46,866 nucleotides of DNA from Spirochaetaceae bacterium. GTDB taxonomy: Bacteria; Spirochaetota; Spirochaetia; Treponematales; Treponemataceae. Under the pieces are notes generated by a model, which did no database searches, was not told the origin of the DNA, and saw nothing but the letters and a program-made list of their open reading frames with translations. Position 1 is the first letter of the stretch. Each line of letters starts with the position of its first letter. Positions 3,295 through 44,190 of this stretch are shown one piece after another. The stretch covers positions 1-46,866 of the forward strand of contig JAGAOP010000009.1 in NCBI GenBank assembly GCA_017623685.1, written 5' to 3'. The translations under genes and the position numbers were made by a program.

Positions 3295-4282
3295 CCCGAT
3301 AAATTTTCTTTACAATGTTTTCTATACTTGCACCTTCAGCAGAAAAATCAGCAACTTTAAAAGTTCCTAAAAGCTTTTGCAATATTTTAGAAGCTGTGTA
3401 ATCTTTAAGGTTAAAGGTAACGACTATGGCCCCATCTGAATTAAATGTTGCAACAATATTTTTTTTGAATAAACTCTGTATTTTTTCTGGAGTACATTCT
3501 TTTTCATCTGAATCAAGGCGCAACACTATACGACCTTCGTCACCATATTGTTTTTTTAAGTTTTCAAGGTTGCCATCGTAAACAATTTTTCCTTGATCAA
3601 TTAAAATAATTCTTTGGCAAAGTTGCTCTATGTCTTGCATATCATGGGTTGTTAGAATAATTGTGGTACCGTATTTTTCATTTATTTCTTTTATTGCTTT
3701 TCGTACCCTTTCTTTTACAAGTACATCCAACCCAATAGTTGGTTCATCTAAGAATAGAATTTTAGGATTATGCAATAAGGAAGCTGCTAAATCAGCTTTC
3801 ATTCGTTGCCCCAAGGATAAGGTTCTAACAGGTTGCATAAAAAATTCGTCTAAGCCTAAAAGCTCAGTAAAATAATCTAACCTTTCTTTGAATTCAATTT
3901 CTGGTATTTCGTATATTTTTTGTAAAATTGTAAAACTTTCACAAAGTGGCAAATCCCACCAAAGTTGAGTTCTTTGACCAAAAACTACACCTATGTTTTT
4001 GGCATTTTCTTCTCTACATTTATATGGTTCTTTTCCTTCAACTAAAACCTTCCCATTTGTAGGGGTTAGAATTCCTGTCATAATTTTTATTGTAGTTGAT
4101 TTCCCTGCTCCATTAGAACCAATGTATCCTGTAATTTGTCCATCAGGAATTGAAAAAGAAATATTATTTATTGCTTTTTTTTCTGTATATTCTTTTGTAA
4201 ATAAACTTTTTATAGCCCCTTTTAGCCCTGGAAATTTCTTAGAAGTTCTAAAAGTTTTTTCTAGGTTAATTACTTCAATCAT
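3284..4282 (-). CDS. ABC exporter ATPase (COG4586-like)
   Basis: Nucleotide-binding subunit of the exporter, 332 aa. Visible motifs: Walker A GSNGAGKS (55-62), Q-loop near GQRTQLWW (102-109), signature LSLGQ (155-159), Walker B ILFLDE (175-180) and H-loop H213. The signature reads SLGQ rather than SGGQ, as I recall for the COG4586 group. A C-terminal extension of about 90 residues follows the ATPase core. A promoter (TTTACC, 17 bp, TATTAT) ends only 6 nt before the ATG and no Shine-Dalgarno intervenes, so the operon mRNA is probably leaderless. First gene of the operon running down to 1641 or 374. Confidence 0.92.
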   Translation of the reverse strand: MIEVINLEKTFRTSKKFPGLKGAIKSLFTKEYTEKKAINNISFSIPDGQITGYIGSNGAGKSTTIKIMTGILTPTNGKVLVEGKEPYKCREENAKNIGVVFGQRTQLWWDLPLCESFTILQKIYEIPEIEFKERLDYFTELLGLDEFFMQPVRTLSLGQRMKADLAASLLHNPKILFLDEPTIGLDVLVKERVRKAIKEINEKYGTTIILTTHDMQDIEQLCQRIILIDQGKIVYDGNLENLKKQYGDEGRIVLRLDSDEKECTPEKIQSLFKKNIVATFNSDGAIVVTFNLKDYTASKILQKLLGTFKVADFSAEGASIENIVKKIYRDAE

Positions 4283-4288
4283 GAAACA

Positions 4289-4317
4289 ATAATAGTAAAA
4301 AACAAAAAAAAGGTAAA
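4289..4317 (-). promoter_or_regulatory. Promoter of the ABC-2 exporter operon, leaderless geometry
   Basis: On the minus strand TTTACC (4317-4312), 17-bp spacer, TATTAT (4294-4289), then 6 nt to the ATG at 4282. No Shine-Dalgarno between. Confidence 0.6.
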
Positions 4318-4354
4318 CAGCGTTGAATAATTATGTAAAATATAATAAGTGAAT

Positions 4355-4383
4355 TTGACATATGTTTTGTGGCATGATATTCT
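4355..4383 (+). promoter_or_regulatory. Promoter of the GH13 gene, leaderless geometry
   Basis: TTGACA (4355-4360), 17-bp spacer ending in TGA (extended -10), TATTCT (4378-4383), then seven T residues and the ATG at 4391. Transcription would begin at or next to the start codon. The upstream in-frame GTG at 4349 lies before the -35 and cannot be the start of this transcript. Confidence 0.72.
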
Positions 4384-4390
4384 TTTTTTT

Positions 4391-6301
4391 ATGAATAATT
4401 CTAATACTTGGTTAAATAGCGTCTATAGTGATGGTTCATGTTGGTTTGTAAGTAATCCATTGCCCCAAAAAGGTGAAAAGATTACTTTAGCTATTCAGTT
4501 GTCAGAAAAAGCTCCAGTTACTAGCGTAATATTGCGAGGAAAACTTAACGGAGTAGAACAACTGAAAAAAATGGAATGTAAGCAAAAGAAAAATGGCTTA
4601 CTCAGATACGAAGCTCAAGTTCAAATTTGGGAAAAAGAACTTAGGTATCAATTTTATTTATTAACAAAAGATTGTATTTATTATTATACAGAAGCTGGTA
4701 TTACAACATATATTCCAGATGAATCTAGAGATTTTAGAATTCTTACGGATTACAAGCAACCAGAATGGGTAAAGAACGCAGTTTTTTATCAGATTTTTCC
4801 AGAAAGATTTTGCAATGGAAATCCTGATAATGACGTTAAAGATGATGAATATATTTTTGATGGATTTCCAACTCAACAAATTAAAGATTGGAACGCTGTT
4901 CCTCAAGATTATGAAAAAGCCCATTGCTTAGATTTTTATGGTGGGGATTTAGAAGGAATCATTCAAAAAATTCCTTATTTAAAGAAACTAGGTGTTACAG
5001 CTTTATATTTAAACCCTATTTTTTATGCTGCAACAATTCATAAATATGATTGCTTAGACTATTTTCAAGTAGACCCCCATTTTGGTGGAGATAAGGCTTT
5101 GGCAGATTTATCTAATGAATTGCATAAAAATGGGATGAAATTGATTTTAGACGTATCGATAAATCACACTGGAATTGCAAACAAGTGGTTTAATAGAGAT
5201 GGTACTTTTTTCCCAAAAAATCAAGGAGCTTACAATAATCCAGATTCAGAAGAAAGAAGTTATTACTTCTTCAAAGAAGATAATTCCTACAAGGCATGGT
5301 GGGATGTTGCAACCTTACCAACCTTAAATTATACTTCCCAAAAACTTAGAAATCGCCTTTACCGAGATTCAGATTCTTTGGTAAAAAAATGGTTAAAGCC
5401 CCCATATTCCATAGATGGTTGGAGATTTGATGTGGCAGATGTTATGGCTCGTAATGACGAAATTCAGTTACATCATGAAGTATGGCCAGAAATAAATGCT
5501 AGCATAAAAGAAGAAAATCCTCAGGCTTATGTTTTGGCAGAGGATTGGACTGATTGTAGCGAATACCTAAATGGAGATGAATGGGATTCTCCTATGAATT
5601 ATTTTGGTTCTTGTCGCCCAATTAGACAGTTCTATGGGGAATCAGATTTATTTAATTCTAGGTGTCAAGAGTTAAAAGAAATAAAATATAAAATGACTGC
5701 AAAGGATCTTTCTCAAAGAATTACTGGTTTTCTTTCTAAACTGCCCTTTGCAATTCGCCAAGTTCAGTTCAACTTAATAGATAGCCACGATGTTCCACGT
5801 TTCCACAATAATCCTAATATTTCAAAAGACGCTTGTCGTGGTGCGGCTATAATGCTTTTTACTTTACCTGGATGTGCAAATGTTTATTATGGTGATGAAG
5901 CAGAAATTGATGGTCGAATTGATTCAAATGAAGGTTGCCGATATCCTATGCCTTGGTCAAAGGATATTGAAGGAACTGAAGCTTGGAAAATTTATTCTAC
6001 GTTGGCAAAAATTAAAACCACTGAAAAAGTTTTTTTAGATGGTGGATTTAAAGTTCTTTGGGATAATGATTATGTTTTTTCTTATGCTAGATTTACTCCC
6101 GAAGATTTATGGATTACAGTTTGTTCAGCTGATAACCAAGACAGAAAAATTAATTTGCCACTGGATATTTTTGGAGAATCTTTTGCAACTCTAACTTTGC
6201 CTTCTCAAGATGAATTAGGTCAAGCCATTAGAGGTCAAATAAAAGATGGAGAACTTATTCTAGAGGTGCCTGCAGGTAAGGCATTTTTAATAAAATTGTA
6301 G
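4391..6301 (+). CDS. GH13 maltodextrin hydrolase (neopullulanase/cyclomaltodextrinase-like)
   Basis: Glycoside hydrolase family 13 enzyme of about 636 aa, no signal peptide, so probably cytoplasmic, acting on imported maltodextrins or cyclodextrins. An N-terminal beta-rich domain of about 120 residues, CBM34-like, precedes the (beta/alpha)8 barrel. Conserved regions: LDVSINH (region I), GWRFDVAD with nucleophile D347, AEDW with acid/base E384, and SHD with D467 (numbers from the 4391 start). YLNPIF...HKYD resembles region V of GH13_20 enzymes. I chose the ATG at 4391 because the promoter ends at 4383. The gene converges on sbcC with only 4 nt between stop codons. Exact specificity among neopullulanase, maltogenic amylase and cyclomaltodextrinase is not decidable here. 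Confidence 0.9.
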   Translation: MNNSNTWLNSVYSDGSCWFVSNPLPQKGEKITLAIQLSEKAPVTSVILRGKLNGVEQLKKMECKQKKNGLLRYEAQVQIWEKELRYQFYLLTKDCIYYYTEAGITTYIPDESRDFRILTDYKQPEWVKNAVFYQIFPERFCNGNPDNDVKDDEYIFDGFPTQQIKDWNAVPQDYEKAHCLDFYGGDLEGIIQKIPYLKKLGVTALYLNPIFYAATIHKYDCLDYFQVDPHFGGDKALADLSNELHKNGMKLILDVSINHTGIANKWFNRDGTFFPKNQGAYNNPDSEERSYYFFKEDNSYKAWWDVATLPTLNYTSQKLRNRLYRDSDSLVKKWLKPPYSIDGWRFDVADVMARNDEIQLHHEVWPEINASIKEENPQAYVLAEDWTDCSEYLNGDEWDSPMNYFGSCRPIRQFYGESDLFNSRCQELKEIKYKMTAKDLSQRITGFLSKLPFAIRQVQFNLIDSHDVPRFHNNPNISKDACRGAAIMLFTLPGCANVYYGDEAEIDGRIDSNEGCRYPMPWSKDIEGTEAWKIYSTLAKIKTTEKVFLDGGFKVLWDNDYVFSYARFTPEDLWITVCSADNQDRKINLPLDIFGESFATLTLPSQDELGQAIRGQIKDGELILEVPAGKAFLIKL

Positions 6302-6305
6302 CAGA

Positions 6306-9300: not shown

Positions 9301-9350
9301 TCATGTCTAAAAGGTCCAATGTTTTTTAATTCTAAAAATAAGGGTTTCAT
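6306..9350 (-). CDS. sbcC: Exonuclease subunit SbcC (Rad50-like ATPase)
   Basis: ATPase of the SbcCD nuclease, which opens hairpin and blocked DNA ends; 1014 aa. Walker A GKTGAGKT (32-39), Q-loop in LLPQGEFADFLL (153-164), long coiled coil, zinc hook CPVC (501-504), second coiled coil, then C-terminal signature LSGGE and Walker B FIDEGFGSLD. The full head-coil-hook-coil-head plan is present. Its ATG overlaps the sbcD stop as ATGA, the usual coupled arrangement. Confidence 0.96.
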   Translation of the reverse strand: MKPLFLELKNIGPFRHETLDFSLLGDIFLISGKTGAGKTTIFDAITYALYGKLPGQRSTVSVKHIRSDFASFDEESFVKLKFLLHNKIYQVTRSLPRSYVNKNGAISEKPEELLITEISESSEKTIPGKKTELENFLTTNIGLTPEEFSRIVLLPQGEFADFLLQSSTQRTITLSKLFPVQDYEDIINKTKEMSKKFSQDLASTMQQLEVYGPDYNPENERLEIEQQQEQMIQWQQKQNELTQTLLELEKKILVYSQQLETFTNIEKLQSQKDFLESQRVEIEEQQKKLQLSIQAEPVWIATQDLERITNTIKYLEIQEQESIQAKEKAQINLNQLISESEKINELSEKNKKMTLLFNDIQRSVKEEKELADLIQKRIIFENQEKTVSLQIKDYENEQKNILQKIEQLKKLLDLENHEEITEKFQQLSILMQNAETNLNRAKEKSIQIEQKNKLEKDFAEKLEEENRLKTKLSKIKKELDQKKQTEYAKFLATNLKKDCPCPVCGSLHHPNPAGQELDFSEEELNLETQIQSLEESFSDIFSQRANIEGQLNQLNSLINTLVDVPEEEIAKKEYLATRKNLIQIQTQKEEVAKNTKELNLLQDSLTKIVSSTEPLKQKNTELKIQIEGLSAKIAHLQENLFSVLQNSADFGISENTVAECYKKLVNIISQQEKEIETYFQKKQEEEKLLEKIIGSLEQLAKEKENRNKEKTASEQRLREVLNNSCFENQKEAKKAKLPQEVFTEFEDNIKQWQKNITETETLLKKEKSNLEGTKEETQEKLLQSQNESKNINTAISEEQELYKKFITEKEQRTSKLNQWHELEKKRLKLAQQDTLYRQLYEDISGKNTKTKKIALTTWVLGVYLDEIATYANSRLNRISEGRYTLLMNQSKTSGNGAKGLELEVFDSFTGKERPCNTLSGGEIFMASISLALALTDVVSNKAGGITLDSLFIDEGFGSLDEASLEKALWILDEIRDSRCIGLISHVSEMKSRIPYRLEIVKTPSGSKICPFVES

Positions 9351-10525
9351 TCTTGGTCCTCTTTTTTTGATGCTATTTCCAAAAATAAATCTTTTTCTTG
9401 TTCATAATATTCTGGAATATAACCGTAAATATCTTGGATAAAAGATGCAAAAAGTTTTTCAGTTGCAAGTTTATTGTCTTGCAATAATTCTTTTCTATGC
9501 TTTATAGATTCATTGTTAGAACTAAAATTAATTTTTTCTTGTCTAAAGGACAAAAGATTTGGGTAAATTGGTTTTAGTCTAGCCATAGGATTTTCTATTA
9601 GAGTTGAATCTGTGGAGATAATTTCTAAAATTGCATTTTTATAGTCTATATTATTATTTTTAGGGCGATAAAAATCTTCAAAATTCCCAGTTAGCCTTAT
9701 TACAGGTCTAATAGGTTTGACCAACAATTTTTTTACATCCACCGAAGGTTCCTTTTGTAAATCTATGGTTACATCAAGAAAAAATTTATCTTCACCTGCT
9801 TCGTCAAAAGAGTAGGCTAAGGGAGAGCCAGAATACCATATGTTGTGGGAAGGATTTTGACATCGATGAAGATGCCCTAGGGCAACATATGTAAAATCTT
9901 TAAAAATAGATGAATCAACCTGTTCTGCACTTCCTATAAAAATTCTTTCGGAATCGCTGGGCTTTCCTTGTTTTGTAAATAGGTGAGCACATAACATTGC
10001 TGGAGTATTAGGATAGTTGTTTTTTTTATGAAAAAGAATTTTATTTATTGCTTCTTGAATCATTTCTTGTTGCCTAAGGAAATCTTTACCAAAGGAGCCT
10101 GTTTGTAAAAAAGGAATTGCATAAATGGCAAGTTCAGTTTCTTGGTCTTTTTTTAGAATAATAGGCTTAGTTATTGAATCAACATCTGCAACAATATGTA
10201 TATTTTGGTTAGATAAAATTCTTGATGCAAAGGACAGCCGCCTAGATGAATCATGGTTACCAGAAATAATTATAATTGTTAATTTAGGAAATTTATTTTT
10301 TGCTTCTGTAATAAAATTATCAAATAGGGCTACTGCTTCTGGGGGCGGAACTGCCCTGTCGTAAATGTCTCCTGCTATAATTAAGGCGTCAAAATTATTG
10401 TCTTGTTTTTCTGCGGCTTCAATTTCTTGTAATAATTGGTTTAACATATGTTGTTGGTCTGGAATTAAGGACTGTTCAAAAAAAATCTTTCCAAGGTGTA
10501 AATCACCAGTATGTAGAAGTCGCAT
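9347..10525 (-). CDS. sbcD: Exonuclease subunit SbcD (Mre11-like nuclease)
   Basis: Metallophosphoesterase nuclease partner of SbcC, 392 aa. Metal-binding motifs are in order: GDLHLG at the N-terminus, GDIYD, GNHD, the CAH motif in CAHLFT, and GHLH. A C-terminal capping region follows. First gene of a two-gene operon. A promoter with a perfect TATAAT ends 6 nt before the ATG and no Shine-Dalgarno is present, so the message should be leaderless. A processing role at hairpin DNA is known for the family; the hairpin-rich repeat at the left end could be a substrate, but that is speculation. Confidence 0.96.
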   Translation of the reverse strand: MRLLHTGDLHLGKIFFEQSLIPDQQHMLNQLLQEIEAAEKQDNNFDALIIAGDIYDRAVPPPEAVALFDNFITEAKNKFPKLTIIIISGNHDSSRRLSFASRILSNQNIHIVADVDSITKPIILKKDQETELAIYAIPFLQTGSFGKDFLRQQEMIQEAINKILFHKKNNYPNTPAMLCAHLFTKQGKPSDSERIFIGSAEQVDSSIFKDFTYVALGHLHRCQNPSHNIWYSGSPLAYSFDEAGEDKFFLDVTIDLQKEPSVDVKKLLVKPIRPVIRLTGNFEDFYRPKNNNIDYKNAILEIISTDSTLIENPMARLKPIYPNLLSFRQEKINFSSNNESIKHRKELLQDNKLATEKLFASFIQDIYGYIPEYYEQEKDLFLEIASKKEDQE

Positions 10526-10531
10526 ATAAAT

Positions 10532-10560
10532 ATTATACCTTTTCCAAAATGAAAGAACAA
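10532..10560 (-). promoter_or_regulatory. Promoter of sbcDC, leaderless geometry
   Basis: TTGTTC (10560-10555), 17-bp spacer, TATAAT (10537-10532), 6 nt, ATG at 10525. The -35 keeps only TTG; the -10 is perfect. Confidence 0.68.
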
Positions 10561-14524: not shown

Positions 14525-14554
14525 TTGCTAGGATAAGTTATGATATGATATAAT
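14525..14554 (+). promoter_or_regulatory. Promoter of the metal ABC operon, leaderless geometry
   Basis: TTGCTA (14525-14530), 18-bp spacer ending TGA (extended -10), TATAAT (14549-14554), 8 nt, ATG at 14563. No Shine-Dalgarno. I saw no convincing Zur/TroR operator. Confidence 0.68.
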
Positions 14555-14562
14555 TTTATATT

Positions 14563-15372
14563 ATGTCTAATTTTATTAAAACTTGTAATCATTCCCATTG
14601 TTCAAGATGTAGCGAAAAAAGTAATGATTTTCATGGGAATAAAGAAGGTCATATTTGTTGTACAAAAATAGAACATCTTTCTGTAAAATCCAATGGGGAA
14701 TTTATTATTGAAGATATTAATTTACATATTCATTGTGGGGAATTAACTGCAATTATTGGGCGAAATGGAGCTGGAAAAACCACTTTTTTGCGAACTTTGT
14801 TAGATGAAGTTCCACATTCTGGAGAAATTCACTTTATGAAAGATGGAAAAGGTTGTACTTCAAAACCAAAGTTTGGATATGTGCCACAACGATTAGAAGT
14901 TGCTCCAGATAGTCCTGTTTCTGTGGGTGACTTTGTTCTTTCTTGCCTATCAACTCGACCTGTGTGGTTACCTAGACGCAAAAAAGATAAAAATCTAATT
15001 AACCAAATTTTATCTGTAACTGGAACCCAGCATTTAGAAAGCCGTCGTTTATGTGAGCTTTCTGGAGGAGAACTTCAGCGAGTTCTTTTAGCTTTGGCAA
15101 TAAATCCTGTGCCAGATATTTTACTTTTAGATGAACCTGTTTCTGGGGTAGATAGGGCAGGGCTTTCTGTTTTTTATGAATTGGTATCGGAATTAAGGCA
15201 CAGTCACGACATTACAATTTTGCTTATTTCTCATGATTTAGATTTAATAAAAAAACATGCTGATAAAGTAGTTCTTATTGATAAAAAAATTGTTGCGCAA
15301 GGAACTCCAGATGAAGTGTATTTATCTTCGACATTTGCAGAAGTTTTTGGTTCAACTGGAGGTACTAAATGA
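14563..15372 (+). CDS. Zinc/manganese-type ABC transporter ATPase with Cys/His-rich N-terminus
   Basis: ATPase of a ZnuC/TroB-type metal importer, 269 aa. Walker A GRNGAGKTT (66-74), signature LSGGE (166-170), Walker B ILLLDE (186-191) and an ISHD H-loop. Ahead of the normal start region is a 33-residue extension rich in cysteine and histidine (C8, H10, H12, C13, C16, H24, H30, C32, C33), which could bind metal and sense or buffer it. The promoter fixes the start at 14563, so the extension should be translated. The permease follows with an ATGA overlap. No substrate-binding protein is in this operon; it may be encoded elsewhere. Zinc versus manganese is not decidable. Confidence 0.9.
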   Translation: MSNFIKTCNHSHCSRCSEKSNDFHGNKEGHICCTKIEHLSVKSNGEFIIEDINLHIHCGELTAIIGRNGAGKTTFLRTLLDEVPHSGEIHFMKDGKGCTSKPKFGYVPQRLEVAPDSPVSVGDFVLSCLSTRPVWLPRRKKDKNLINQILSVTGTQHLESRRLCELSGGELQRVLLALAINPVPDILLLDEPVSGVDRAGLSVFYELVSELRHSHDITILLISHDLDLIKKHADKVVLIDKKIVAQGTPDEVYLSSTFAEVFGSTGGTK

Positions 15373-17815: not shown

Positions 17816-19147
17816 TTACATTCCGCCGAATTGTTGCATAAACTTTGCTTGCATCCCTTTGTTTTTAGTTAATTTTTTCATGGCAAGCCTTGTTTTTTCA
17901 AATTGTTTAATCAAACGATTTACTTCGGCTACAGATGTTCCTGAACCTTTAGCAATGCGTTTTCTTCGACTAGGTCCAATGATTAAATGGTTTGCTCTTT
18001 CTTTTTTAGTCATAGAAAGAATGATTGCTTCTTGGGTTTTCATTCCACTAGTGTCTATGTCTTGGTCTCCGATTTGTCCTGCAAGACCTGGCATCATTTC
18101 GATTAAGGATTGCATTGGTCCCATTTTCTTTACACGCTGTAATTGCTCAAGCATATCTTGCAGTGTAAAGGTTTCATTCATCATTTTTTTCTGAAGCTTA
18201 ATAGCTTCTTCTTCATCGATGGTTTCTTGGGCTTTTTCTACCAAAGAAACAATATCACCCATGCCTAAAATTCGGCTTGCAATTCGTTCTGGATGGAAAG
18301 GTTCAAAGTCTGTAGTTTTTTCACCTGTACCGATAAAAAGAATTGGCTTACCTGTTATTGACTTTAAGGAAAGAGCTGCACCACCACGGGCATCGGAATC
18401 AAACTTAGTAAGAATTACACCTGAAAGTCCAAGTTTTTCGTCAAAGGCTTTGGCAATATCCACAGCATTTTGACCTGTCATTGCATCTGCTACTAAGATT
18501 AGTTCATCTGGTGTAACTGCTTTTTTTACAGCTGCAATTTCATCCATCATAACTTCATCGATTTGCAAACGACCTGCTGTATCGATAATCAATGTGTCAA
18601 AGCCATTTTTCTTTGCGTGGTTAACAGCATTTTTTGCAACCTTTACAGCGTCTTTGGTATCTTCGTTATAAACTGGTACTCCTATTTTTTCTCCAAGGAC
18701 GCATAACTGCTGTATAGCTGCAGGACGAACAAGGTCACAGGCTGCAAGCATGGGTTTTCGCCCTTCTTTTGCCAAGCGAGCAGCTAATTTTGCAGCCGCT
18801 GTTGTTTTACCAGCACCTTGTAACCCAAGTAATAAAATAATAGAAAGGGTATCAGGACCTTTTAACTTTAGATCAGTTTTTGCATCACCTAGAAGGGCTA
18901 CAATCTTGTCGTGAATAATTTTAACAAATTGTTGACCTGGATCTACTGCACGAAGAACTTTTTCACCTTTAGCTTCTTCGATTGTGCTATTTACAAATCT
19001 ACGAACAACACGTAAGTTTACGTCTGCTTCTAGCAGAGCCATTTTAATTTGCTCTACTGTTTCTTCTATGTTTTTTTCTGTAATTGTGGATTTGCCATTT
19101 AATTTGCGAATCACATCGGTAAATGTATTGGTAATTTTCTCTAACAT
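17816..19147 (-). CDS. ffh: Signal recognition particle protein Ffh (SRP54)
   Basis: GTPase that binds signal sequences and delivers ribosomes to FtsY at the membrane; 443 aa, normal length. N domain, G domain with GLQGAGKTT, DTAGRL and TKFDSDARGG, then a methionine-rich M domain ending MQAKFMQQFGGM. Monocistronic by context. A promoter (TTGAGA, 17 bp, TATACT) ends 6 nt before the ATG and no ribosome site is present, so the mRNA should be leaderless. Confidence 0.97.
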   Translation of the reverse strand: MLEKITNTFTDVIRKLNGKSTITEKNIEETVEQIKMALLEADVNLRVVRRFVNSTIEEAKGEKVLRAVDPGQQFVKIIHDKIVALLGDAKTDLKLKGPDTLSIILLLGLQGAGKTTAAAKLAARLAKEGRKPMLAACDLVRPAAIQQLCVLGEKIGVPVYNEDTKDAVKVAKNAVNHAKKNGFDTLIIDTAGRLQIDEVMMDEIAAVKKAVTPDELILVADAMTGQNAVDIAKAFDEKLGLSGVILTKFDSDARGGAALSLKSITGKPILFIGTGEKTTDFEPFHPERIASRILGMGDIVSLVEKAQETIDEEEAIKLQKKMMNETFTLQDMLEQLQRVKKMGPMQSLIEMMPGLAGQIGDQDIDTSGMKTQEAIILSMTKKERANHLIIGPSRRKRIAKGSGTSVAEVNRLIKQFEKTRLAMKKLTKNKGMQAKFMQQFGGM

Positions 19148-19153
19148 GAATTC

Positions 19154-19182
19154 AGTATACGGAATAAAACGGAATTTCTCAA
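19154..19182 (-). promoter_or_regulatory. Promoter of ffh, leaderless geometry
   Basis: TTGAGA (19182-19177), 17-bp spacer, TATACT (19159-19154), then GAATTC and the ATG at 19147. Confidence 0.75.
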
Positions 19183-19194: not shown

Positions 19195-19908
19195 TTAGTT
19201 GTTGTTTAAGGGTTCAAAACCATCAAAAATTACTGAATAATATGAATTTGTTGAGTTTTTGTCTGGTTCAAAATACACTGTTACCCTTGCAGTTGTTGAA
19301 TGAATTTTAGGGTCGAAGGAATCAAGGGGTAGTGCTATAGTTAGTGGGTTACTATTATTCAGTCTAATAAAGCATGTGTATGCATCAAAAAGTAAAACTG
19401 TATGGTCGATTATTACAAAATTTACAAAAGAAAATTCAGGTTTACCAGAAAGGCTTACTTTGAACTTTTCGTTACCTATGTAAAAAGGCATATTTAGGTT
19501 TTCCCCAGATGAATCGCTAAAACCTGTACTTTCTGAATAACCTTCTAATGTTTCCCCTTTCACTGTAAAATAATTACTAGGATCAGAACCCTCAGCAAAT
19601 TGCCATTGAATAGCTCTTGGTCTTTGTTCCGGAATATCTCCAAACACATTTGATTGTGCTTCATTCATAAAAGCTCCATTCGGAGAATGTCCCATGAGAC
19701 GAATTACAAAATACATATAACCTGCCTCTTTATCTTCTTCGCTATAAGTTATGTATTTTGTTACTTCCATAAAATCAGGATTCGGAGGAATTGGTAATTC
19801 TTCTGGAATAGGTTTCATTGGAATATGGGTAATAGATTTATCTTCAAAATTATTCCCACAGGAAAAAAGAGAAAAAATAAAAATGAACAAAATAATAATT
19901 TTCTTCAT
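19195..19908 (-). CDS. Putative lipoprotein of unknown function
   Basis: 237 aa. The N-terminus is a lipoprotein signal with lipobox LFSC (C17) followed by GNN. The rest looks beta-rich and soluble, with no motif I recognise, and should sit in the periplasm or at the surface. Not obviously part of an operon: ffh lies downstream with its own promoter, and dapB is divergent. A TGATATAAT extended -10 ends 7 nt before the ATG without a Shine-Dalgarno. Confidence 0.8.
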   Translation of the reverse strand: MKKIIILFIFIFSLFSCGNNFEDKSITHIPMKPIPEELPIPPNPDFMEVTKYITYSEEDKEAGYMYFVIRLMGHSPNGAFMNEAQSNVFGDIPEQRPRAIQWQFAEGSDPSNYFTVKGETLEGYSESTGFSDSSGENLNMPFYIGNEKFKVSLSGKPEFSFVNFVIIDHTVLLFDAYTCFIRLNNSNPLTIALPLDSFDPKIHSTTARVTVYFEPDKNSTNSYYSVIFDGFEPLNNN

Positions 19909-19915
19909 TAAAAGG

Positions 19916-19924
19916 ATTATATCA
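19916..19924 (-). promoter_or_regulatory. Extended -10 promoter of the lipoprotein gene
   Basis: TGA plus TATAAT on the minus strand, 7 nt before the ATG at 19908. No good -35 at 17-18 bp. Confidence 0.5.
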
Positions 19925-19964
19925 CAAATATGAAAAATAAGGTTTTTTTTTCAAAAAAAAAGTA

Positions 19965-19993
19965 TTGCTATAAAAATAAAAATACTCTATTCT
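19965..19993 (+). promoter_or_regulatory. Promoter of dapB, leaderless geometry
   Basis: TTGCTA (19965-19970), 17-bp spacer, TATTCT (19988-19993), 8 nt, ATG at 20002. It lies inside the longer open frame that starts at 19930, which argues against that longer start. Confidence 0.68.
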
Positions 19994-20001
19994 TTAAAAT
20001 T

Positions 20002-20781
20002 ATGAAGATAGCATTAGTTGGCTACGGACAAATGGGCCATATGATAGAATTATGGTCTAAAAAATTAGGCCATGAAGTTGTTGCTACAGTGGATACTATA
20101 GCACCAGATGCAAAGTATAAGGTGAAATCAGGGGACCAAGATGCCCTTGTTCAAGCAATTACTCAAAGTGGAGCAGAAGGAATAATTGATTTTAGCCATC
20201 CTTCCGCTGTATTAGACAATATTAAAGCTCTTTTACCTACAAAATTACCTTTAGTTGTAGGAACAACTGGTTGGAATCAGCATGAAGATATGGTTTCTCA
20301 GTGGGCTTCTAGTACCGGTGGAACTATAATAAGATCAGCAAATTTTTCTGTAGGGGTAAATTTATTTTATCGAATAGTACAAGAAGTAGCCAAGCTTTTT
20401 TCTGACTTTGAAGAATATGATATGGCTATCTGGGAAGCCCATCATACTCGAAAAGCAGATAGTCCTTCTGGTACCGCATTGGAAATCGCTAAAAGAGTAA
20501 TGTGTTCTAACCCTCATAAAACAGAAATTGTAACAGATGCTTTCCATGATAAGCCAAATCCTGAACAATTACATGTATCCAGTACTCGCATAGGTTCTGT
20601 GCCTGGAACCCACACCTTGTTTATAGATTCATCTGCAGATACTATAGAAATTACTCATCGAGCTCGCTCAAGAGAAGGTTTCGCTTGTGGCGCTGTAAGG
20701 GCATTGGAACGGCTGGATTCAGCATTAAAAACAGGGCTTTTGCAACCAGGAAAACTCTATAGTATGGAAGATTTATTCTAA
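20002..20781 (+). CDS. dapB: 4-hydroxy-tetrahydrodipicolinate reductase
   Basis: NAD(P)H-dependent reductase of lysine and diaminopimelate synthesis, 259 aa. The N-terminus KIALVGYGQMG is the nucleotide-binding loop. VVGTTGW and the catalytic EAHHTRKADSPSGTA (H147, H148, K151) are present. The open frame extends to 19930, but the added 24 residues are lysine-rich, unlike the family, and the promoter lies inside them. The product serves peptidoglycan and lysine supply together with lysC at 33449. Confidence 0.95.
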   Translation: MKIALVGYGQMGHMIELWSKKLGHEVVATVDTIAPDAKYKVKSGDQDALVQAITQSGAEGIIDFSHPSAVLDNIKALLPTKLPLVVGTTGWNQHEDMVSQWASSTGGTIIRSANFSVGVNLFYRIVQEVAKLFSDFEEYDMAIWEAHHTRKADSPSGTALEIAKRVMCSNPHKTEIVTDAFHDKPNPEQLHVSSTRIGSVPGTHTLFIDSSADTIEITHRARSREGFACGAVRALERLDSALKTGLLQPGKLYSMEDLF

Positions 20782-20807: not shown

Positions 20808-20836
20808 TTGTATCAGTTTTATTGCTGTGATAATAT
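20808..20836 (+). promoter_or_regulatory. Promoter of lepB-ftsI operon, leaderless geometry
   Basis: TTGTAT (20808-20813), 17-bp spacer ending TGA, TAATAT (20831-20836), 9 nt, ATG at 20846. An out-of-frame ATG at 20842 would lie just before or at the expected 5' end. Confidence 0.5.
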
Positions 20837-20845
20837 TATAAATGG

Positions 20846-25120: not shown

Positions 25121-27873
25121 AGACTTGCTGGTGGAAAGTTAATAAGGTATTCTTCCATAACCTTTGAAAATTCTACAACTGTAGCTTTGTTTATAATTTC
25201 AAAATCTTTTAAATATTGAATTTGGGAACCTGTTTCATTAATGCCTTTTGCAATCAATTCAGTTACAGCAATGTTACTAGAAATATCCGAAAGAATATTA
25301 AATTGCCACTTTGTCTTTATTCCCACAATAATATCCTCTCCTTTTTGACTTAAAATATCTTCTGCTAATTGGGTTGCTGTTCTTTTTAGTACTGCATCAA
25401 TATCTAAAAGTCTTGGAACAGATAAAATTTGTAATCCTCCAAAGGGGGATTTGATAGAAGCAATTTTAGTTTTAACTTCTAATCCTGTTGCCTTTTCGAT
25501 TCTCTGTTCCATTTCAAAGAGCAAAGAATTGTACAAAGGTAATTCATCTATATTGTTAGGGGCGTTACTGTAATAATGAACAGGATCGTTAAATTCAGTT
25601 GTGGGAATTAGTTTAGCAGGACGTTCTCCAGCTAATTCTGCAGGAATATCCGTTGTGAATACCCGATACAAAGAAATGTATTTTTTTATTTCTGGTACAC
25701 TAATAGTTGATTTTTCCGCTATTTCATTTTTTGTTGTGATTTTTATTTTAGGATGTTTTTGCAAAATACCAAAATTTTCTTCTGCTGCCTTTGTTACGGA
25801 TTCAAAATCTTGGGAAGTTGCAACAATTATCGTATATCTTGAAGCATCTAAAATGTGGGTATAGGCATTTTGTATATTTTCAAAGTTTAAATTTGCCAAA
25901 AGTGGTGTTTTCAAATTATAAAGTTTTTTATTTTTTGGATAAATTCTCTGCATAAAATTGCAATAGATTTGAAAAGAAGTATCTGCTGCAAGAAATTTAT
26001 ATTCCCTTTGCATATTGAAAACAGTTTCATCTGCAATAGAAGGCGTTACATCTCCAAAGACAATGCTACCAATTGCGGCTTGAAGGCAACGATAAATATC
26101 TTGGCTATGGCATTTTATTGTTATTGAACCAGAATTTATTCCTGTTTCGCAAGTTATTTCCGGCATGTAAAAAATTGCATCAGAATTATAATATTCTTTC
26201 ATAACCATTAGCATATTTTCTGTTACAATTCTTAAAATAAGACTTTCCATGCCTCTTATTCCCAAAAATGATTTTTCTTCCCCACCTGATATTTCAAGAC
26301 GTATTGCAGATTCACTTTGTAAAGGGGAATGTTTATAAATTACAGGTATGCCGTTGGATAAGGTTTTAGACTTAAATAATTCTAATTGATTAGCTAGAAA
26401 ATTTTGTGTTGCATCAAAAGTTTTAGGTAGGTTTTCAGAAGGAATTTCAGAGGATGATTTTTCAATATTTGTTTCTGCAGAGGTGTTTTGTTTATTTTGA
26501 AAATCCGTATCCACTTCTTTTATTACGACAAAGTTTTCATTTTCGAACTGAAGGGAATTTTCTTCATAATTTTTGCTGTTCATTAAAACATAGCAATATG
26601 GTGTCTTTTCTAAACTGGTAAGGGCAATTTTTTTTATTTCATCTATACTAAATTCTTTTGTAAAAGGCAGCCCTGTTTCTCCAAAGTTTTTAGCAAGATT
26701 TTCCATGAATTTTTTTGAAGAATCAAATTCGCCTTTTTGTATTTCTAATCTCTTAATTGAATTTGGCAGATTTTCTGAATATAATTTATTCACTAAATAA
26801 CTTTTTATTGAATCTTTTATTTCATTGATTTGAAGTGCAAAATTTTCTGAAAGATTTGCTAAGCCTTGAACTACGAGCCGATAGTTTCCTAAAAATTTAT
26901 CTTTACTTGCAAAAATATAATGAGTAGATGAAATATGTTTCTCGATATTTGAAACAATGGTTTGTAATCCCTGATTTTCCTTTTCGGTAAGTAGTTGAAC
27001 AAGTAAATCTGTGGCTATAGCTTGTTCTTGTGGGGCATAATTTGTGTCGCAAGGAAATTGTATAATAATTTGGTTTAAGTCAGGTGAAAAATTATCAGAA
27101 ACTAATAAAAAATTATGTTGCAAATCTTTGTTTTTTATAAGAGAATTACTAGGGCTTTCTGTTTTTTTTCCTGTATATTGTCCAAAATATCGATTAATTA
27201 AGGATTCAATTTGGTAAATATCAAGGGCTCCGTGAATAAAAATAGCACAATTATCTGGTGTATAAAGTTTTTGATTTAATGCATAAAGTTCTTGTCTTAT
27301 TTGTGCCGTGCTTTTTTTTGATAGCTCATTATAAGAAATTCCAGGATAATGTTGCCTTTCATCAGAAGAGGTAATAGAAGTGGCTACCTTTTGGTTAATA
27401 AACAAAGTGCTTGTTTTTTCTAATGCCTGTATTTGAGTTAAATACTCCTCTTTTTCTTTTCGTAAGGTGGAATCAGAGAAAAAAGGCTTAAAACATTGTT
27501 CTCCAAAAGTACTTAAAGCTAATTCGGTTTTTTCAGGGTGAATTTTTATGCCATAGTAGGTTGCTACATCGTCATAATTTGCAAAAAAACTGGCACCGGA
27601 ATCCAGTAATTCTTGATTTTCTTTTTCTAAAGAAAAAAACATTTTTGTTCTGATAGGAATTAATCCAGGGAATTCCTCTGTTTGATGTGCAAGACCTGCT
27701 TTGATTACTAATTGAATATTTACAAAAGGTTCTGTGGAATCAGGTAGTACAAAAACAGATAGGTCGTTTTTTAATTTAAAAGTATATAGTTTTTCTTGGT
27801 AAGAATCTTGGGCAAAGATAATTTGGGTAAAGAAAAGAAATAAGGTTATAATTGTGCAGAAAAAACGCCCCAT
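25096..27873 (-). CDS. M16-like secreted protein without the zinc motif
   Basis: About 925 aa, with a signal peptide ending near IIFAQDS. The sequence has the repeated-half character of M16 (pitrilysin/processing peptidase) proteins, for example DNCAIFIHGALD in the N-terminal half. Where active members carry HxxEH after the AGxxH stretch, this protein reads PGLIPIRTKMFF with no HxxEH, so it is probably not a peptidase, or the active half is lost. Exported by its signal peptide, probably periplasmic. A promoter ends 6 nt before the ATG at 27873; an upstream TTG lies inside the -10 and is not used. Confidence 0.8.
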   Translation of the reverse strand: MGRFFCTIITLFLFFTQIIFAQDSYQEKLYTFKLKNDLSVFVLPDSTEPFVNIQLVIKAGLAHQTEEFPGLIPIRTKMFFSLEKENQELLDSGASFFANYDDVATYYGIKIHPEKTELALSTFGEQCFKPFFSDSTLRKEKEEYLTQIQALEKTSTLFINQKVATSITSSDERQHYPGISYNELSKKSTAQIRQELYALNQKLYTPDNCAIFIHGALDIYQIESLINRYFGQYTGKKTESPSNSLIKNKDLQHNFLLVSDNFSPDLNQIIIQFPCDTNYAPQEQAIATDLLVQLLTEKENQGLQTIVSNIEKHISSTHYIFASKDKFLGNYRLVVQGLANLSENFALQINEIKDSIKSYLVNKLYSENLPNSIKRLEIQKGEFDSSKKFMENLAKNFGETGLPFTKEFSIDEIKKIALTSLEKTPYCYVLMNSKNYEENSLQFENENFVVIKEVDTDFQNKQNTSAETNIEKSSSEIPSENLPKTFDATQNFLANQLELFKSKTLSNGIPVIYKHSPLQSESAIRLEISGGEEKSFLGIRGMESLILRIVTENMLMVMKEYYNSDAIFYMPEITCETGINSGSITIKCHSQDIYRCLQAAIGSIVFGDVTPSIADETVFNMQREYKFLAADTSFQIYCNFMQRIYPKNKKLYNLKTPLLANLNFENIQNAYTHILDASRYTIIVATSQDFESVTKAAEENFGILQKHPKIKITTKNEIAEKSTISVPEIKKYISLYRVFTTDIPAELAGERPAKLIPTTEFNDPVHYYSNAPNNIDELPLYNSLLFEMEQRIEKATGLEVKTKIASIKSPFGGLQILSVPRLLDIDAVLKRTATQLAEDILSQKGEDIIVGIKTKWQFNILSDISSNIAVTELIAKGINETGSQIQYLKDFEIINKATVVEFSKVMEEYLINFPPASLYSESRLK

Positions 27874-27879
27874 AAATGT

Positions 27880-27908
27880 ATTATACAATAGGATTAAATA
27901 AGTGTCAT
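27880..27908 (-). promoter_or_regulatory. Promoter of the M16-like gene, leaderless geometry
   Basis: ATGACA (27908-27903), 17-bp spacer, TATAAT (27885-27880), 6 nt, ATG at 27873. Confidence 0.75.
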
Positions 27909-38184: not shown

Positions 38185-39432
38185 TTACTCCTCCTTAGGG
38201 AAATCAAATTCATCAAAGGATTCTAATCCTAAGTCATCTTTTGAGTTAGTTGCATTTTTTTCTGCCTGTTGTGCCAATATTACTTCTGGTTCAGTTTCTT
38301 CTGTGTTTTGTTCTGTAGCTTCATTTTCATTTGTATCGGAATTTTCCCTAGGTGCTCCTGTTTCTTCATTTTCATCTTCTTCTGTACCCTTAAGAGCTTC
38401 AAAAACATCTTTTTCATCTTGGGGCATAACGTCGTATACAAAGGATAAAACTACATTTTTCATTTCTGGGTCAATTTTTATACACTCAAAATGAATTCTT
38501 GATTGATTAAGTTCTTTATTGTATTCCACGGCTCGAACAATGCCAGCCATAACAATGTAGTTGTCGCCTATTGGGAATTGTAACTTTATAGAAATTCCAT
38601 TTGAACCCTTGCCACCAATTCTGATTAAGGCTCCGTCGGCAGAAATATCTTCTATCATACAACGATATCCTCCTGCCATATCTTCTACATTAGTGTCAAA
38701 GGTGGAATTTCTTCCAGAAATATATAAGCGGGCACCAATCGAACATTTGGTTCGGACAGATTTTCGTTTTTGTACCCTAGTTAAATCTGAGGAATGGGTT
38801 ATGTATAGAACAGGTGTACTTCCATATTGTCCAGAACCAATTACAGCTGAATCAAAGGCATAGCAAGCATCATCTTTTCGCCAAAGATAAACGCTTATTC
38901 TTTTTCCAACCCATTCGTTGCCGTACATTGTAATTATTCCGTCTTTTGAAGGCACATGAATAATTAATTCTCGACCATTCATTTCTATACGGGAAACAAA
39001 AACTCCAACGCCTTTTAAAACAATACGAAGTTTTTGACCTTCATCTAAGAATTTAGAGGATTTAAGCCCTTTTTTTGCTAAAGGATCAAGTTCTACTTTT
39101 GTTCGATATGCATATAATTTTGTTAAAAACTTTTGAGTCTTTTTTGTATATTCTGTTCCATTTGCTCTTGAAGTAGAAATAAGTTTGGAAATACTTCTTG
39201 AAAGGGCTGGTACAGAAAGATATAAGGCGGTGGGTTCTTCTAATTCGCAAAGTCGTGCCAATTTCCACAGGGATAATATTTCTGAAAGGGAAAATCCAGA
39301 ATCAATACCAGTAGTAAAAAAAGAAACAGTTTCTTTGTTTTTAGTAAGCCAACGGATGCCTAAAACAATTAATGCTAAAACTATAACCAGAATTATTATA
39401 TACAAAATTTCCTCTTTATAGTATAATATCAT
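38185..39432 (-). CDS. Membrane-anchored PilZ-domain protein
   Basis: Likely c-di-GMP receptor, 415 aa. N-terminal membrane helix (about 10-28), a helical region, a beta-rich YcgR-N-like domain (about 125-215), then a PilZ domain with RKSVR (R223, R227) and DISADG (262-267), the two ligand-binding signatures. The C-terminus is a glutamate-rich tail. The start is unsettled: ATG 39432, or TTG 39405, which has GAGG close upstream. First gene of the unit ending in rsmA. A link to motility control is inference from PilZ/YcgR proteins. Confidence 0.86.
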   Translation of the reverse strand: MILYYKEEILYIIILVIVLALIVLGIRWLTKNKETVSFFTTGIDSGFSLSEILSLWKLARLCELEEPTALYLSVPALSRSISKLISTSRANGTEYTKKTQKFLTKLYAYRTKVELDPLAKKGLKSSKFLDEGQKLRIVLKGVGVFVSRIEMNGRELIIHVPSKDGIITMYGNEWVGKRISVYLWRKDDACYAFDSAVIGSGQYGSTPVLYITHSSDLTRVQKRKSVRTKCSIGARLYISGRNSTFDTNVEDMAGGYRCMIEDISADGALIRIGGKGSNGISIKLQFPIGDNYIVMAGIVRAVEYNKELNQSRIHFECIKIDPEMKNVVLSFVYDVMPQDEKDVFEALKGTEEDENEETGAPRENSDTNENEATEQNTEETEPEVILAQQAEKNATNSKDDLGLESFDEFDFPKEE

Positions 39433-41919: not shown

Positions 41920-41949
41920 ATATTAGCATAGAAAAATAAAAAGATTCAA
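41920..41949 (-). promoter_or_regulatory. Promoter of argS
   Basis: TTGAAT (41949-41944), 18-bp spacer ending TGC, TAATAT (41925-41920). Confidence 0.5.
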
Positions 41950-42053
41950 CAGTTAAAAAAAATCAATTATTTAGGCTTTTATATTGTTAGAAAAACTATA
42001 GAATCTTTTACTAATTTTTTTTACAATTCAGATTGCTAAAAAAAGGGGAGTAA

Positions 42054-42830: not shown

Positions 42831-42889
42831 TTTTTTTAAATTTTTGGGTACCAAATATAAATAAAATGGCAAGACCATAATTGTATTTT

Positions 42890-43241
42890 TTATTCTTCAA
42901 TAAAAATACTAAAAGTTATAGATTGTCCTGCTTTTTCTTCTGGTTGTACATAAGTGTAAGTTACAGAGTTTTCGTCGCAACTTTTAATTGAAAAAATAAT
43001 ATGGCTTTCTGTTTTGTAATTTAATTCTATAGTAAAGACTTGTTGTTGCTCAGGAAAATCTTTTTCTTTCCAACCTGAAATAGTGTAAGATGCAAAAGTT
43101 TGTGCTGAATCATCAATTTCGGTTATAACAAGATTTTTGTCTACATAAACAGTAACAGGGTTTATAGGGGCTTCTTCTTGGGGAAAATGACCTTGATTTA
43201 ATAAAGAATTTCCTATAAGACTTTTTTATAAAAAACTCCAT
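42890..43241 (-). pseudogene. Small hypothetical gene frameshifted in an A6 tract
   Basis: A clear coding frame of about 110 codons (NPVTVYVDKNLVITEIDD ... SITFSIFIEE, stop at 42892-42890) has no start codon. ATG 43241 reads MEFFIK and then meets an A6 run (43222-43227). With five A residues instead of six the two parts join into one 116-residue protein continuing SLIGNSLLNQGHFPQ. A CATAAT -10 lies 6 nt before the ATG, matching the leaderless pattern here. No signal peptide or known domain. Real mutation, slippage-controlled expression or a sequence error are possible. It fills most of the gap between the MBL gene and nudC. Confidence 0.7.
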
Positions 43242-43372
43242 TAAATAATTATGGTTTTGATATAAAATATAATTTTACAACCTGTCAACATTTATATATT
43301 TAACTTAATAAAAAAATATAATTTATTTTATAAAAATGGGTGAAAATCATTTTTTTAGATTTTAAAAAGAAC

Positions 43373-44155
43373 TTAAATTAATCCCATAATTAGGCGATAA
43401 GCCATAGACCCTGGTTGCGGAATTGAGGGGAGTTTATCCCGAGAAAACCATTTTAATTCGCTAATTTCGTTGGCTTCAGGAACAAGGTCTCCACTTTTCC
43501 AGTCTGCATAATAAGCCAGCATTATTTGGTCAGGATAGGGCCAACTTTGACTTCCTGCATAACGAATATTGGTTATTTCAATCCCAGCTTCTTCTTGTAC
43601 TTCTCTTGAAACGCAATCTTCTATTGTTTCGCCTGCTTCAACATAACCTGCTAAACAGGTAAAAACATCGGTGTTTCTTTGTTTGTGTCTTGCCAGTAGA
43701 ATTTTATCATCTTTTTGAACTAATACAATCATTGCAGGCGAAATAGTAGGGTAATATACACTTCCACAACTTAAACATACTTTTGCAGTTTCATCGGTGG
43801 AATCATGAAGTTGATTTCCACATTTACCACAAAATCTAGATCTTTTTCTCCAGTTTAATAAAGCAAGACCTCTAGATAAGGAATTAATTTTAATATGATT
43901 TTGAGCAAATAATTCTCGTATTGGAACCCATTTCCATCCATTTGGAGCTGGTGCTCCACTTTCAAGAAGCAGGGCTGAATAATTGTGATTTGTTTCGGTA
44001 AACCAGTCTGTGGCTAGTTGGTGTTCAATAAACTTATAATAAACAGAGAAATCTGGTAACCGATGAAATTCTTCTGTTGATACAAGAACTTCACTTCCTC
44101 TGTAAATAAAAATTAAATTATTTTCCGATACAATTTGAGAATTTATAATTGCCAT
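43373..44155 (-). CDS. nudC: NADH pyrophosphatase NudC
   Basis: Nudix hydrolase cleaving NADH and removing NAD caps from RNA; 260 aa. Zinc ribbon C109, C112, C127, C130; Nudix box from G170 (GYVEAGETIEDCVSREVQEEAG); then SQSWPYPDQ, corresponding to the NudC signature SQPWPFP. A promoter ends 6 nt before the ATG with no Shine-Dalgarno, so the mRNA should be leaderless. Monocistronic, or reading on into the frameshifted gene at 43241. Confidence 0.95.
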   Translation of the reverse strand: MAIINSQIVSENNLIFIYRGSEVLVSTEEFHRLPDFSVYYKFIEHQLATDWFTETNHNYSALLLESGAPAPNGWKWVPIRELFAQNHIKINSLSRGLALLNWRKRSRFCGKCGNQLHDSTDETAKVCLSCGSVYYPTISPAMIVLVQKDDKILLARHKQRNTDVFTCLAGYVEAGETIEDCVSREVQEEAGIEITNIRYAGSQSWPYPDQIMLAYYADWKSGDLVPEANEISELKWFSRDKLPSIPQPGSMAYRLIMGLI

Positions 44156-44161
44156 ATTTTT

Positions 44162-44190
44162 ATGATACCATGGGTTTTTTTATGGTGCAA
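44162..44190 (-). promoter_or_regulatory. Promoter of nudC, leaderless geometry
   Basis: TTGCAC (44190-44185), 17-bp spacer ending TGG, TATCAT (44167-44162), 6 nt, ATG at 44155. Confidence 0.65.

What the first reader, a model, noticed from the sequence alone, without database searches (positions are those of the whole stretch)
4282..44190. Widespread leaderless-mRNA promoters: -10 box 6-9 nt before the start codon
At least ten genes show a -10 directly abutting the ATG without a Shine-Dalgarno (-35/spacer/-10/gap): ABC ATPase 4282 (TTTACC/17/TATTAT/6), GH13 4391 (TTGACA/17/TATTCT/7), sbcD 10525 (TTGTTC/17/TATAAT/6), metal ABC 14563 (TTGCTA/18/TATAAT/8), ffh 19147 (TTGAGA/17/TATACT/6), lipoprotein 19908 (extended TATAAT/7), dapB 20002 (TTGCTA/17/TATTCT/8), lepB 20846 (TTGTAT/17/TAATAT/9), M16-like 27873 (ATGACA/17/TATAAT/6), nudC 44155 (TTGCAC/17/TATCAT/6). 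A TG one base before the -10 recurs in several. Genes with normal leaders and Shine-Dalgarno sites coexist (yebC, lysC, isoamylase, hexokinase). Heavy use of leaderless transcripts is well known in actinobacteria and Deinococcus; I do not know of a description for treponemes.
Basis: partly seen in the sequence, partly recalled or inferred. Interest (0 to 1): 0.85.

Follow-up and report, generated by a model that had tools for sequence, protein, structure and literature searches.

The report
Leaderless promoters across treponeme spirochaetes
In this treponeme and in most of the related spirochaete genomes counted, many genes have a predicted promoter that ends only six or seven bases before the start codon and lack the usual ribosome-binding site, so their messenger RNAs likely begin at the start codon itself, a known but unusual mode that would make start sites in these bacteria readable from promoters.

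Summary
All ten claimed -10 boxes and all nine claimed -35 boxes are exact, and none of the ten genes has a Shine-Dalgarno motif. In ten sampled family genomes, 161 of 498 free-standing genes without Shine-Dalgarno have TAnnnT 5-8 nt before the start, against 61 expected. The peak is at exactly 6 nt (81 genes; other offsets 10-29), then 7 nt (46). Gap-6 boxes have a -35 at exactly 17 bp (42 of 81; control boxes 8 of 115), and gap-6/7 genes a pyrimidine at -1 (110 of 127). E. coli in the same pipeline gives 0 of 50. Without gene calling, whole-genome counts exceed the 12-nt control in 59 of 59 genomes of the order, 51 at p<0.01. Promoters of sbcD, nudC, ffh, M16 and GH13 orthologues mostly keep the position; dapB does not. 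Hence likely σ70-type leaderless transcription of about 7% of genes (8.5% here), at ATG starts. Not new in kind: leaderless genes were predicted for Spirochaetes in 2011 and mapped in Leptospira. The searches run showed no treponeme report. No 5' end was measured.

The parts
4283..4317 (-). predicted leaderless promoter of ABC transporter ATPase (gene 3284-4282): -35 TTTACC 4312-4317, 17 bp, -10 TATTAT 4289-4294, gap 6
   Evidence: boxes; Pfam ABC_tran; relatives not tested
4355..4390 (+). predicted leaderless promoter of GH13 glycosidase (gene 4391-6301): TTGACA 4355-4360, 17 bp, TATTCT 4378-4383, gap 7
   Evidence: (Alpha-amylase); kept in both orthologues found (in L311 the ATG just before the one chosen is at gap 6)
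10526..10560 (-). predicted leaderless promoter of sbcD (gene 9347-10525): TTGTTC 10555-10560, 17 bp, TATAAT 10532-10537, gap 6; GDLHLG begins at codon 7
   Evidence: TAnnnT at gap 5-8 in 16 of 18 family genomes, own included; Pfam Metallophos and SbcD_C
14525..14562 (+). possible leaderless promoter of metal-type ABC ATPase (gene 14563-15372): TTGCTA 14525-14530, 18 bp, TATAAT 14549-14554, gap 8
   Evidence: Pfam ABC_tran; relatives not tested
19148..19182 (-). predicted leaderless promoter of ffh (gene 17816-19147): TTGAGA 19177-19182, 17 bp, TATACT 19154-19159, gap 6
   Evidence: kept in all 7 of the genus genomes that gave a full-length ffh match (10 searched), three of those loci at 52-57% GC
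19909..19924 (-). extended -10 (TGaTATAAT; hexamer 19916-19921), gap 7, of a lipoprotein-like gene (19195-19908); no -35 match
   Evidence: no Pfam family; relatives not tested
19965..20001 (+). possible leaderless promoter of dapB (gene 20002-20781): TTGCTA 19965-19970, 17 bp, TATTCT 19988-19993, gap 8; not conserved
   Evidence: none of 24 relative loci has TAnnnT at gap 5-9, 19 are flagged SD
20808..20845 (+). predicted promoter of lepB (gene 20846-21364): TTGTAT 20808-20813, 17 bp, TAATAT 20831-20836, gap 9; alternative TATTAT at gap 6
   Evidence: 17 of 21 lepB loci share a different, strongly conserved stretch with TCGACA-17-TAGAAT
27874..27908 (-). predicted leaderless promoter of M16-like peptidase (gene 25096-27873): ATGACA 27903-27908, 17 bp, TATAAT 27880-27885, gap 6
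   Evidence: TAnnnT at gap 5-8 in 6 of 7 loci, own included, relatives at 23-34% identity; four of the starts were chosen 4-10 codons from the projected one and the L318 box is weak; Pfam M16
44156..44190 (-). predicted leaderless promoter of nudC (gene 43373-44155): TTGCAC 44185-44190, 17 bp, extended TGGTATCAT (hexamer 44162-44167), gap 6
   Evidence: gap 6 in 7 of 8 genus members with a usable start, own included, and in four other genera; NUDIX and Zn_ribbon_NUD
1574..1608 (-). addition not in the finding: σ28-like element TAATATG-13-GTCGATAG ending 7 nt before the ATG of an M23/LysM peptidase gene (374-1573)
   Evidence: a like element lies beside lepB in 17 of 21 loci; sigma class inferred

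Best explanation
Roughly one in ten of the free-standing genes of this treponeme and its family are likely transcribed from ordinary σ70-type promoters placed so that RNA synthesis would start at the A of the AUG or one to two bases before it, giving leaderless mRNAs. Shown by sequence: the -10 boxes end 6-7 nt before an ATG, about half have a -35 at 17 bp, there is no Shine-Dalgarno motif, the base before the ATG is mostly a pyrimidine as expected at an initiation site, GTG and TTG candidates do not show the pattern, and the arrangement is kept in orthologues of several genes. Inferred: transcription begins at that A, because the -10 of σ70 promoters lies about 7 nt before the start point (recalled). 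Also inferred: a ribosome carrying initiator tRNA then takes the 5'-terminal AUG directly, as known for leaderless mRNAs elsewhere. Genes with normal leaders and Shine-Dalgarno sites coexist.
For: Position: 10 family genomes, 498 genes with at least 40 nt free upstream and no SD; TAnnnT at gap 6 in 81 and gap 7 in 46, other offsets 10-29. Genes with a hit at gap 5-8: 161 against 61.4 expected (my sums rows). -35 with at least 4 of 6 TTGACA at exactly 17 bp: 42 of 81 (gap 6), 19 of 46 (gap 7), 8 of 115 control boxes at gaps 20-26. Pyrimidine at -1: 110 of 127 against 270 of 397 SD genes and 193 of 337 other no-SD genes. ATG only: boxes at gap 5-8 against gaps 14-17: ATG 168 v 89 of 1429, TTG 36 v 40 of 879, GTG 19 v 19 of 587. 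A downstream SD plus start within 90 nt exists in 3 of 107 leaderless-like genes against 63 of 337 other no-SD and 31 of 397 SD genes. Whole genomes without gene calling, 36 family genomes: 2032 matches at gap 6 against 763 at gap 12. E. coli, same pipeline: 0 of 50, 4.5 expected. Conservation, own genome included: ffh 7 of 7 genus members with a full match, sbcD 16 of 18 family genomes, nudC 7 of 8 genus members, M16 6 of 7 loci, GH13 3 of 3.
Against: No 5' end or ribosome footprint was measured. Leadered transcripts from promoters further upstream could coexist. One family genome, G028, shows no whole-genome excess over the backward control (3 v 6; 1 at gap 12), though its sample is weakly positive (5 of 44 v 1.7). 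The G048 sample is negative (2 of 35 v 3.8) although its whole-genome count is positive (67 v 28 at gap 12). In 8 of 59 genomes the excess over gap 12 does not reach p<0.01. SD genes match in only 6 of 397 (63 expected; sums), but an SD motif occupies the same bases, so that contrast is partly mechanical; choosing no-SD genes may also raise the background near the start a little. dapB is not conserved; outside the family no nudC locus matches at gap 5-9. The only treponeme start sites I saw in print, in T. denticola flagellar genes, lie 14 and 124 nt upstream of the start codon (passages).
Confidence: 0.92

Rival explanations
1. Chance matches: AT-rich sequence before start codons gives TAnnnT by accident.
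For: The window is 34% GC and TAnnnT is common; 61 of the 161 family hits are expected at random offsets.
Against: A sharp single-base peak, a -35 at exactly 17 bp and a -1 pyrimidine; the same excess in several genomes of 50-70% GC and conserved ffh boxes in loci of 52-57% GC; no peak in E. coli.
Confidence: 0.03
2. The promoters are real but the ATG is a wrongly called start; transcripts begin there and translation starts at a later codon with a Shine-Dalgarno site.
For: Start calls are automatic (first ATG), and 63 of 337 other no-SD genes do have a downstream SD plus start.
Against: Only 3 of 107 leaderless-like genes have one. In SbcD the GDLHLG motif begins 7 codons into the frame, leaving no room. 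Ffh matches run from residue 1.
Confidence: 0.03
3. Mixed output: these promoters give leaderless mRNAs, but much of the protein comes from longer transcripts read through from upstream promoters.
For: Upstream promoters were not excluded. 3 of 104 own-genome genes with under 20 nt free upstream also match at gap 6, about background.
Against: The signal concentrates in free-standing genes (28 of 111 no-SD genes with at least 40 nt free upstream, own genome), and no SD is present to serve a longer leader.
Confidence: 0.25

Closest known systems
Leaderless genes of Leptospira interrogans (same phylum), dRNA-seq, PMC5243855 (passages read)
   Same: Spirochaete; many transcripts start within 10 nt of the start codon (about 440, half of them under 2 nt)
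   Different: Mapped experimentally, in a more distant spirochaete. Here only the promoter position is known.
Leaderless genes predicted in Spirochaetes by Zheng 2011, PMC3160421 (passages read)
   Same: Same signal type (a TA-like box just before the start); 6 of 18 Spirochaetes genomes, mean 3.9%, maximum 6.9%
   Different: Phylum row only; Treponema does not occur in the main text. Here 36 family genomes are counted, with orthologue conservation, -35 spacing and ATG restriction. My estimate for this genome is 8.5%.
-10 motif adjacent to ORFs in Deinococcus-Thermus, PMC12340547 (passages read)
   Same: TANNNT a few bp before the ORF gives leaderless mRNA
   Different: There a -35 is not required but strengthens expression, and Zheng gives 39.4% of genes. 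Here about half of the gap-6 boxes have a -35 at 17 bp, and about half of all called genes have an SD motif.
Leaderless mRNAs in Borrelia burgdorferi, stated in PMC10618245 (passage read)
   Same: Spirochaete said to have frequent leaderless transcripts
   Different: Borrelia-sized genomes (f7, identity inferred from size) show little excess with my pattern over the backward control (37 v 34, 33 v 19, 38 v 36).

Membership tests
Bacterial leaderless genes (σ70 type) | -10 box about 6-7 nt before the start codon, more often than chance | tested here: met
Bacterial leaderless genes (σ70 type) | no Shine-Dalgarno site before the start codon | tested here: met
   10 of 10 window genes lack it. In relatives a few sbcD and nudC loci are flagged SD (L212, L213, L226, L272, L275); in L212, L213 and L275 the motif lies before or inside the -10
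Bacterial leaderless genes (σ70 type) | true σ70 promoter (-35 at 17 bp) | tested here: met
   42 of 81 gap-6 boxes against 8 of 115 controls; window gene by gene (the lipoprotein gene has none)
Bacterial leaderless genes (σ70 type) | start codon is ATG, with pyrimidine at -1 | tested here: met
   in the window 8 of 10 have a pyrimidine at -1
Bacterial leaderless genes (σ70 type) | mRNA 5' end at the start codon | not testable with these tools
   no RNA data
Bacterial leaderless genes (σ70 type) | translation from the 5'-terminal AUG | not testable with these tools
   no proteome or ribosome profile; the SbcD reading frame is consistent

The most novel reading that the evidence does not exclude
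Leaderlessness is itself under selection in the order. A fixed set of genes (sbcD, nudC, M16 peptidase, lepB, and ffh within the genus) has been kept leaderless across many genera although gene context, GC content and flanking sequence changed, which would make it a conserved leaderless gene set with its own translational regime. nudC, whose product family removes NAD from +1A RNAs (recalled), is itself predicted to be made from a +1A leaderless mRNA, which would allow a feedback loop.
Probability: 0.4. Interest if true: 0.68.

Novelty: new member of a known kind. Interest (0 to 1): 0.52.

Why it matters
Treponemes are hard to grow and manipulate (recalled), and start sites and promoters there are mostly predicted. 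If this holds, promoter boxes alone fix the start codon of several percent of genes, annotation can be corrected, and expression constructs should not add a leader or ribosome-binding site. It also gives an order-wide, GC-diverse natural set for asking why bacteria keep leaderless genes beside Shine-Dalgarno genes.

Tried and rejected
Considered and rejected: AT-richness, mis-called starts (see rivals), and a general bacterial effect (no peak in E. coli; the E. coli sample is only 200 kb, and the strict pattern is rare there at every gap, 0-2 matches). A simple TATAAT-N2..16-ATG count over the whole own genome was only weakly informative (672 v 566 backward) because the gap range was too wide. 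The strict pattern in 1.76 Mb of sampled family stretches peaks at gaps 6-8 (41, 35, 32) but also reaches 31 at gap 21, where ordinary leadered promoters may lie. The σ28-like element was sought in front of other genes in the sample: G[CT]CGATA[AG] lies 4-9 nt before a start only at the M23 gene, so no second sigma class of leaderless genes is claimed. dapB conservation failed. Three of the ten window genes (ABC ATPase, metal ABC, lipoprotein) were not tested in relatives. The phylum scan (120 genomes) was not tallied as a whole: many rows exceed the backward control about twofold or more (for example G060 98 v 27, G148 54 v 2), some do not (G062 57 v 52, G067 48 v 56, G130 37 v 34, G158 38 v 36), and no gap-12 control was run for it.

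Limits of the counts: genes are called by my own script (at least 80 aa, codon score, first ATG within 150 nt of the longest start; starts within 70 nt of a stretch end are dropped; SD means AGGA, GGAG or GAGG at -20..-5). The p values ignore shared descent. In one search, 7 of 30 nudC loci were skipped because the match began after residue 60; many lepB and some M16 starts were chosen away from the projected codon.
Full report
What was claimed. Ten genes in a 46.9 kb window have a -10 box 6-9 nt before the start codon and no Shine-Dalgarno site.

Check of the observation. The window is contig 36 of an unnamed 1.91 Mb assembly in 66 contigs, 84.8% complete. The nearest named matches by Ffh are Treponema and other spirochaete MAGs. 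TG one base before the -10 is present in 5 of 10, and a pyrimidine at -1 in 8 of 10 (not the lipoprotein gene and lepB). Pfam agrees with the names given for the ABC ATPases, GH13, SbcD, DapB, signal peptidase, M16 and NudC; the 237-aa lipoprotein-like gene has no family (Ffh was not in that scan).

More than chance in this genome. I added 20 stretches of the same genome to the window: 416 kb, 327 called genes. Among genes with at least 40 nt free upstream and no SD, TAnnnT ends exactly 6 nt before the start in 28 of 111, against 5.5 per offset elsewhere. SD genes show 2 of 88. Internal in-frame ATGs (2239) show 1.7% at that offset. Without the split by SD, 33 of 307 first-ATG genes match at gap 6, against 3-27 at other gaps (27 at gap 0, 21 at gap 18). 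Counting gaps 5-8, 48 of 111 genes match against 20.3 expected, an excess of 8.5% of all genes. In the window alone 8 of 12 match (1.8 expected); outside it 40 of 99 (18.6 expected).

More than chance in relatives. Ten family genomes (G000, G001, G003, G010, G011, G017, G022, G023, G026, G028) give 498 such genes. Counts per offset are 81 at gap 6, 46 at gap 7, 29 at gap 8, 28 at gap 9, and 10-26 elsewhere. The excess over expectation is about 100 genes, that is 7% of 1443 called genes and 11% of the 895 with at least 40 nt free upstream (my sums rows). SD genes match in 6 of 397 against about 63 expected, but an SD motif sits on the same bases, so this contrast is partly mechanical. About half of the gap-6 boxes (42 of 81) and 19 of 46 gap-7 boxes have at least four of six TTGACA bases at exactly 17 bp, against 8 of 115 for boxes 20-26 nt upstream. 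The base before the ATG is a pyrimidine in 110 of 127, against 270 of 397 SD genes (p 2e-5) and 193 of 337 other no-SD genes (p 9e-10). TGn precedes the -10 in 38 of 127 against 21 of 318 controls. The pattern is tied to ATG: GTG and TTG candidate starts show no excess. E. coli K-12, 200 kb in the same pipeline, gives 0 of 50 (4.5 expected).

Outside the family: G045 10 of 34 (2.7 expected), G038 at 70% GC 5 of 31 (0.7), G041 3 of 22 (1.0), G048 2 of 35 (3.8).

Without gene calling. The pattern TTGA-N18..20-TANNNT-N6-ATG was counted over 59 whole genomes of the order and compared with the same pattern at N12. It is more frequent at N6 in 59 of 59, at p below 0.01 in 51. By family, N6 v N12: f1 2032 v 763 (36 genomes), f2 50 v 7 (1), f3 253 v 79 (8), f4 323 v 89 (8), f5 480 v 150 (6). 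Only G028 falls below its backward control (3 v 6). G048, negative in its sample, is positive over its whole genome (67 v 28). The E. coli stretches have 0 matches at either gap, but they are short for this pattern.

Conservation gene by gene. ffh: of ten genus genomes seven gave a full-length match, and all seven keep TTG..-17-TATACT or TATAAT before the ATG (gap 6 in six, 8 in L027), three of the loci being 52-57% GC; outside the genus ffh often has an SD-like motif instead, with separate leaderless-looking cases in L040, L090, L098 and L121 (not tallied). sbcD: 16 of 18 family genomes have TAnnnT at gap 5-8; the misses are L219 and L226; the -35 is less well kept. Since GDLHLG begins at codon 7, this ATG must be close to the true start. 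nudC: 7 of 8 genus members with a usable start have the -10 at gap 6, mostly as TTTGC...GGTATCAT, the eighth has gap 9; L270, L271, L273 and L276 in other genera have gap 6 and L275 gap 7; L267, L268, L272, L274 and L277 do not match, nor does any locus outside the family. M16: 6 of 7 loci, relatives at 23-34% protein identity, with uncertain starts in four. GH13: 3 of 3. dapB: 0 of 24 relatives, 19 of them flagged SD, so the own-genome promoter there would be a lineage-specific change or chance.

lepB and the divergent gene. In 17 of 21 lepB loci the upstream region holds a strongly conserved stretch with TATCGACA, a spacer and TATTAGAAT (one further printed match, in L299, is unrelated). It reads as a leaderless promoter (TCGACA-17-TAGAAT) 6-9 nt before the chosen lepB start in 16 of the 17, mostly at gap 8. 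It also reads, on the other strand, as a TAATATG...GTCGATAG element just before a divergent ATG, starting MEII in most. In the present genome lepB lies elsewhere, and a like element stands in front of the M23/LysM gene (374-1573) that starts MEIISYL. That the divergent gene in relatives is the M23 orthologue is inferred from the first codons only. The σ28 label rests on similarity to the CCGATAA -10 reported for T. denticola flaB2 (passage).

Mechanism. Shown: position, promoter-like sequence, absence of SD, ATG restriction, conservation. Inferred: RNA polymerase starts at the A of AUG, and ribosomes initiate on the 5'-terminal AUG as described for leaderless mRNAs in general (recalled). Untested: transcript ends, translation, and the share of output from these promoters.

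Known or new. Spirochaetes appear in the 2011 prediction of leaderless genes (6 of 18 genomes, mean 3.9%; PMC3160421, passages). Leptospira has them mapped (PMC5243855, passages). Borrelia is said to have many (PMC10618245, one passage). Two comparative papers with Spirochaetes rows name no treponeme (PMC5397173 and PMC10783764, passages). Searches for leaderless with Treponema, spirochete and spirochaet, and for treponeme start-site maps, listed no treponeme account; the two T. pallidum papers listed use the word for peptides or in a reference. Searches showed only part of their hits, and most subscription papers and all supplements are not covered. I file it as a new member of a known kind, with good evidence that it is order-wide and conserved for several genes.

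Noticed in passing
window 1574-1608; relatives L291-L298, L300-L308: Strongly conserved intergenic element between lepB and a divergent gene in relatives (TATCGACA-spacer-TATTAGAAT); here a like element stands before the M23/LysM gene while lepB lies elsewhere. Possible overlapping bidirectional promoter, one side σ28-like.
   Followed up: partly
window 19909-20001: A lipoprotein-like gene and dapB are divergent with only 93 bp between their ATGs, each with its own -10 close to the ATG.
   Followed up: partly
G028 stretches L320-L327: This 1.14 Mb family genome (likely T. pallidum by recalled size) is the only one of 59 order genomes whose strict-pattern count falls below its backward control (3 v 6).
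   Followed up: partly
window 38185-39432: The longest-ORF ATG at 39432 is probably not the start: an in-frame TTG preceded by AGAGGAA lies nine codons downstream.
   Followed up: no
L090, L098, L121: ffh in three 57-59% GC treponeme MAGs outside the nearest relatives has its own TAnnnT box at gap 6 before the ATG with a TTG-type -35 upstream, possibly an independent gain of leaderless ffh.
   Followed up: no
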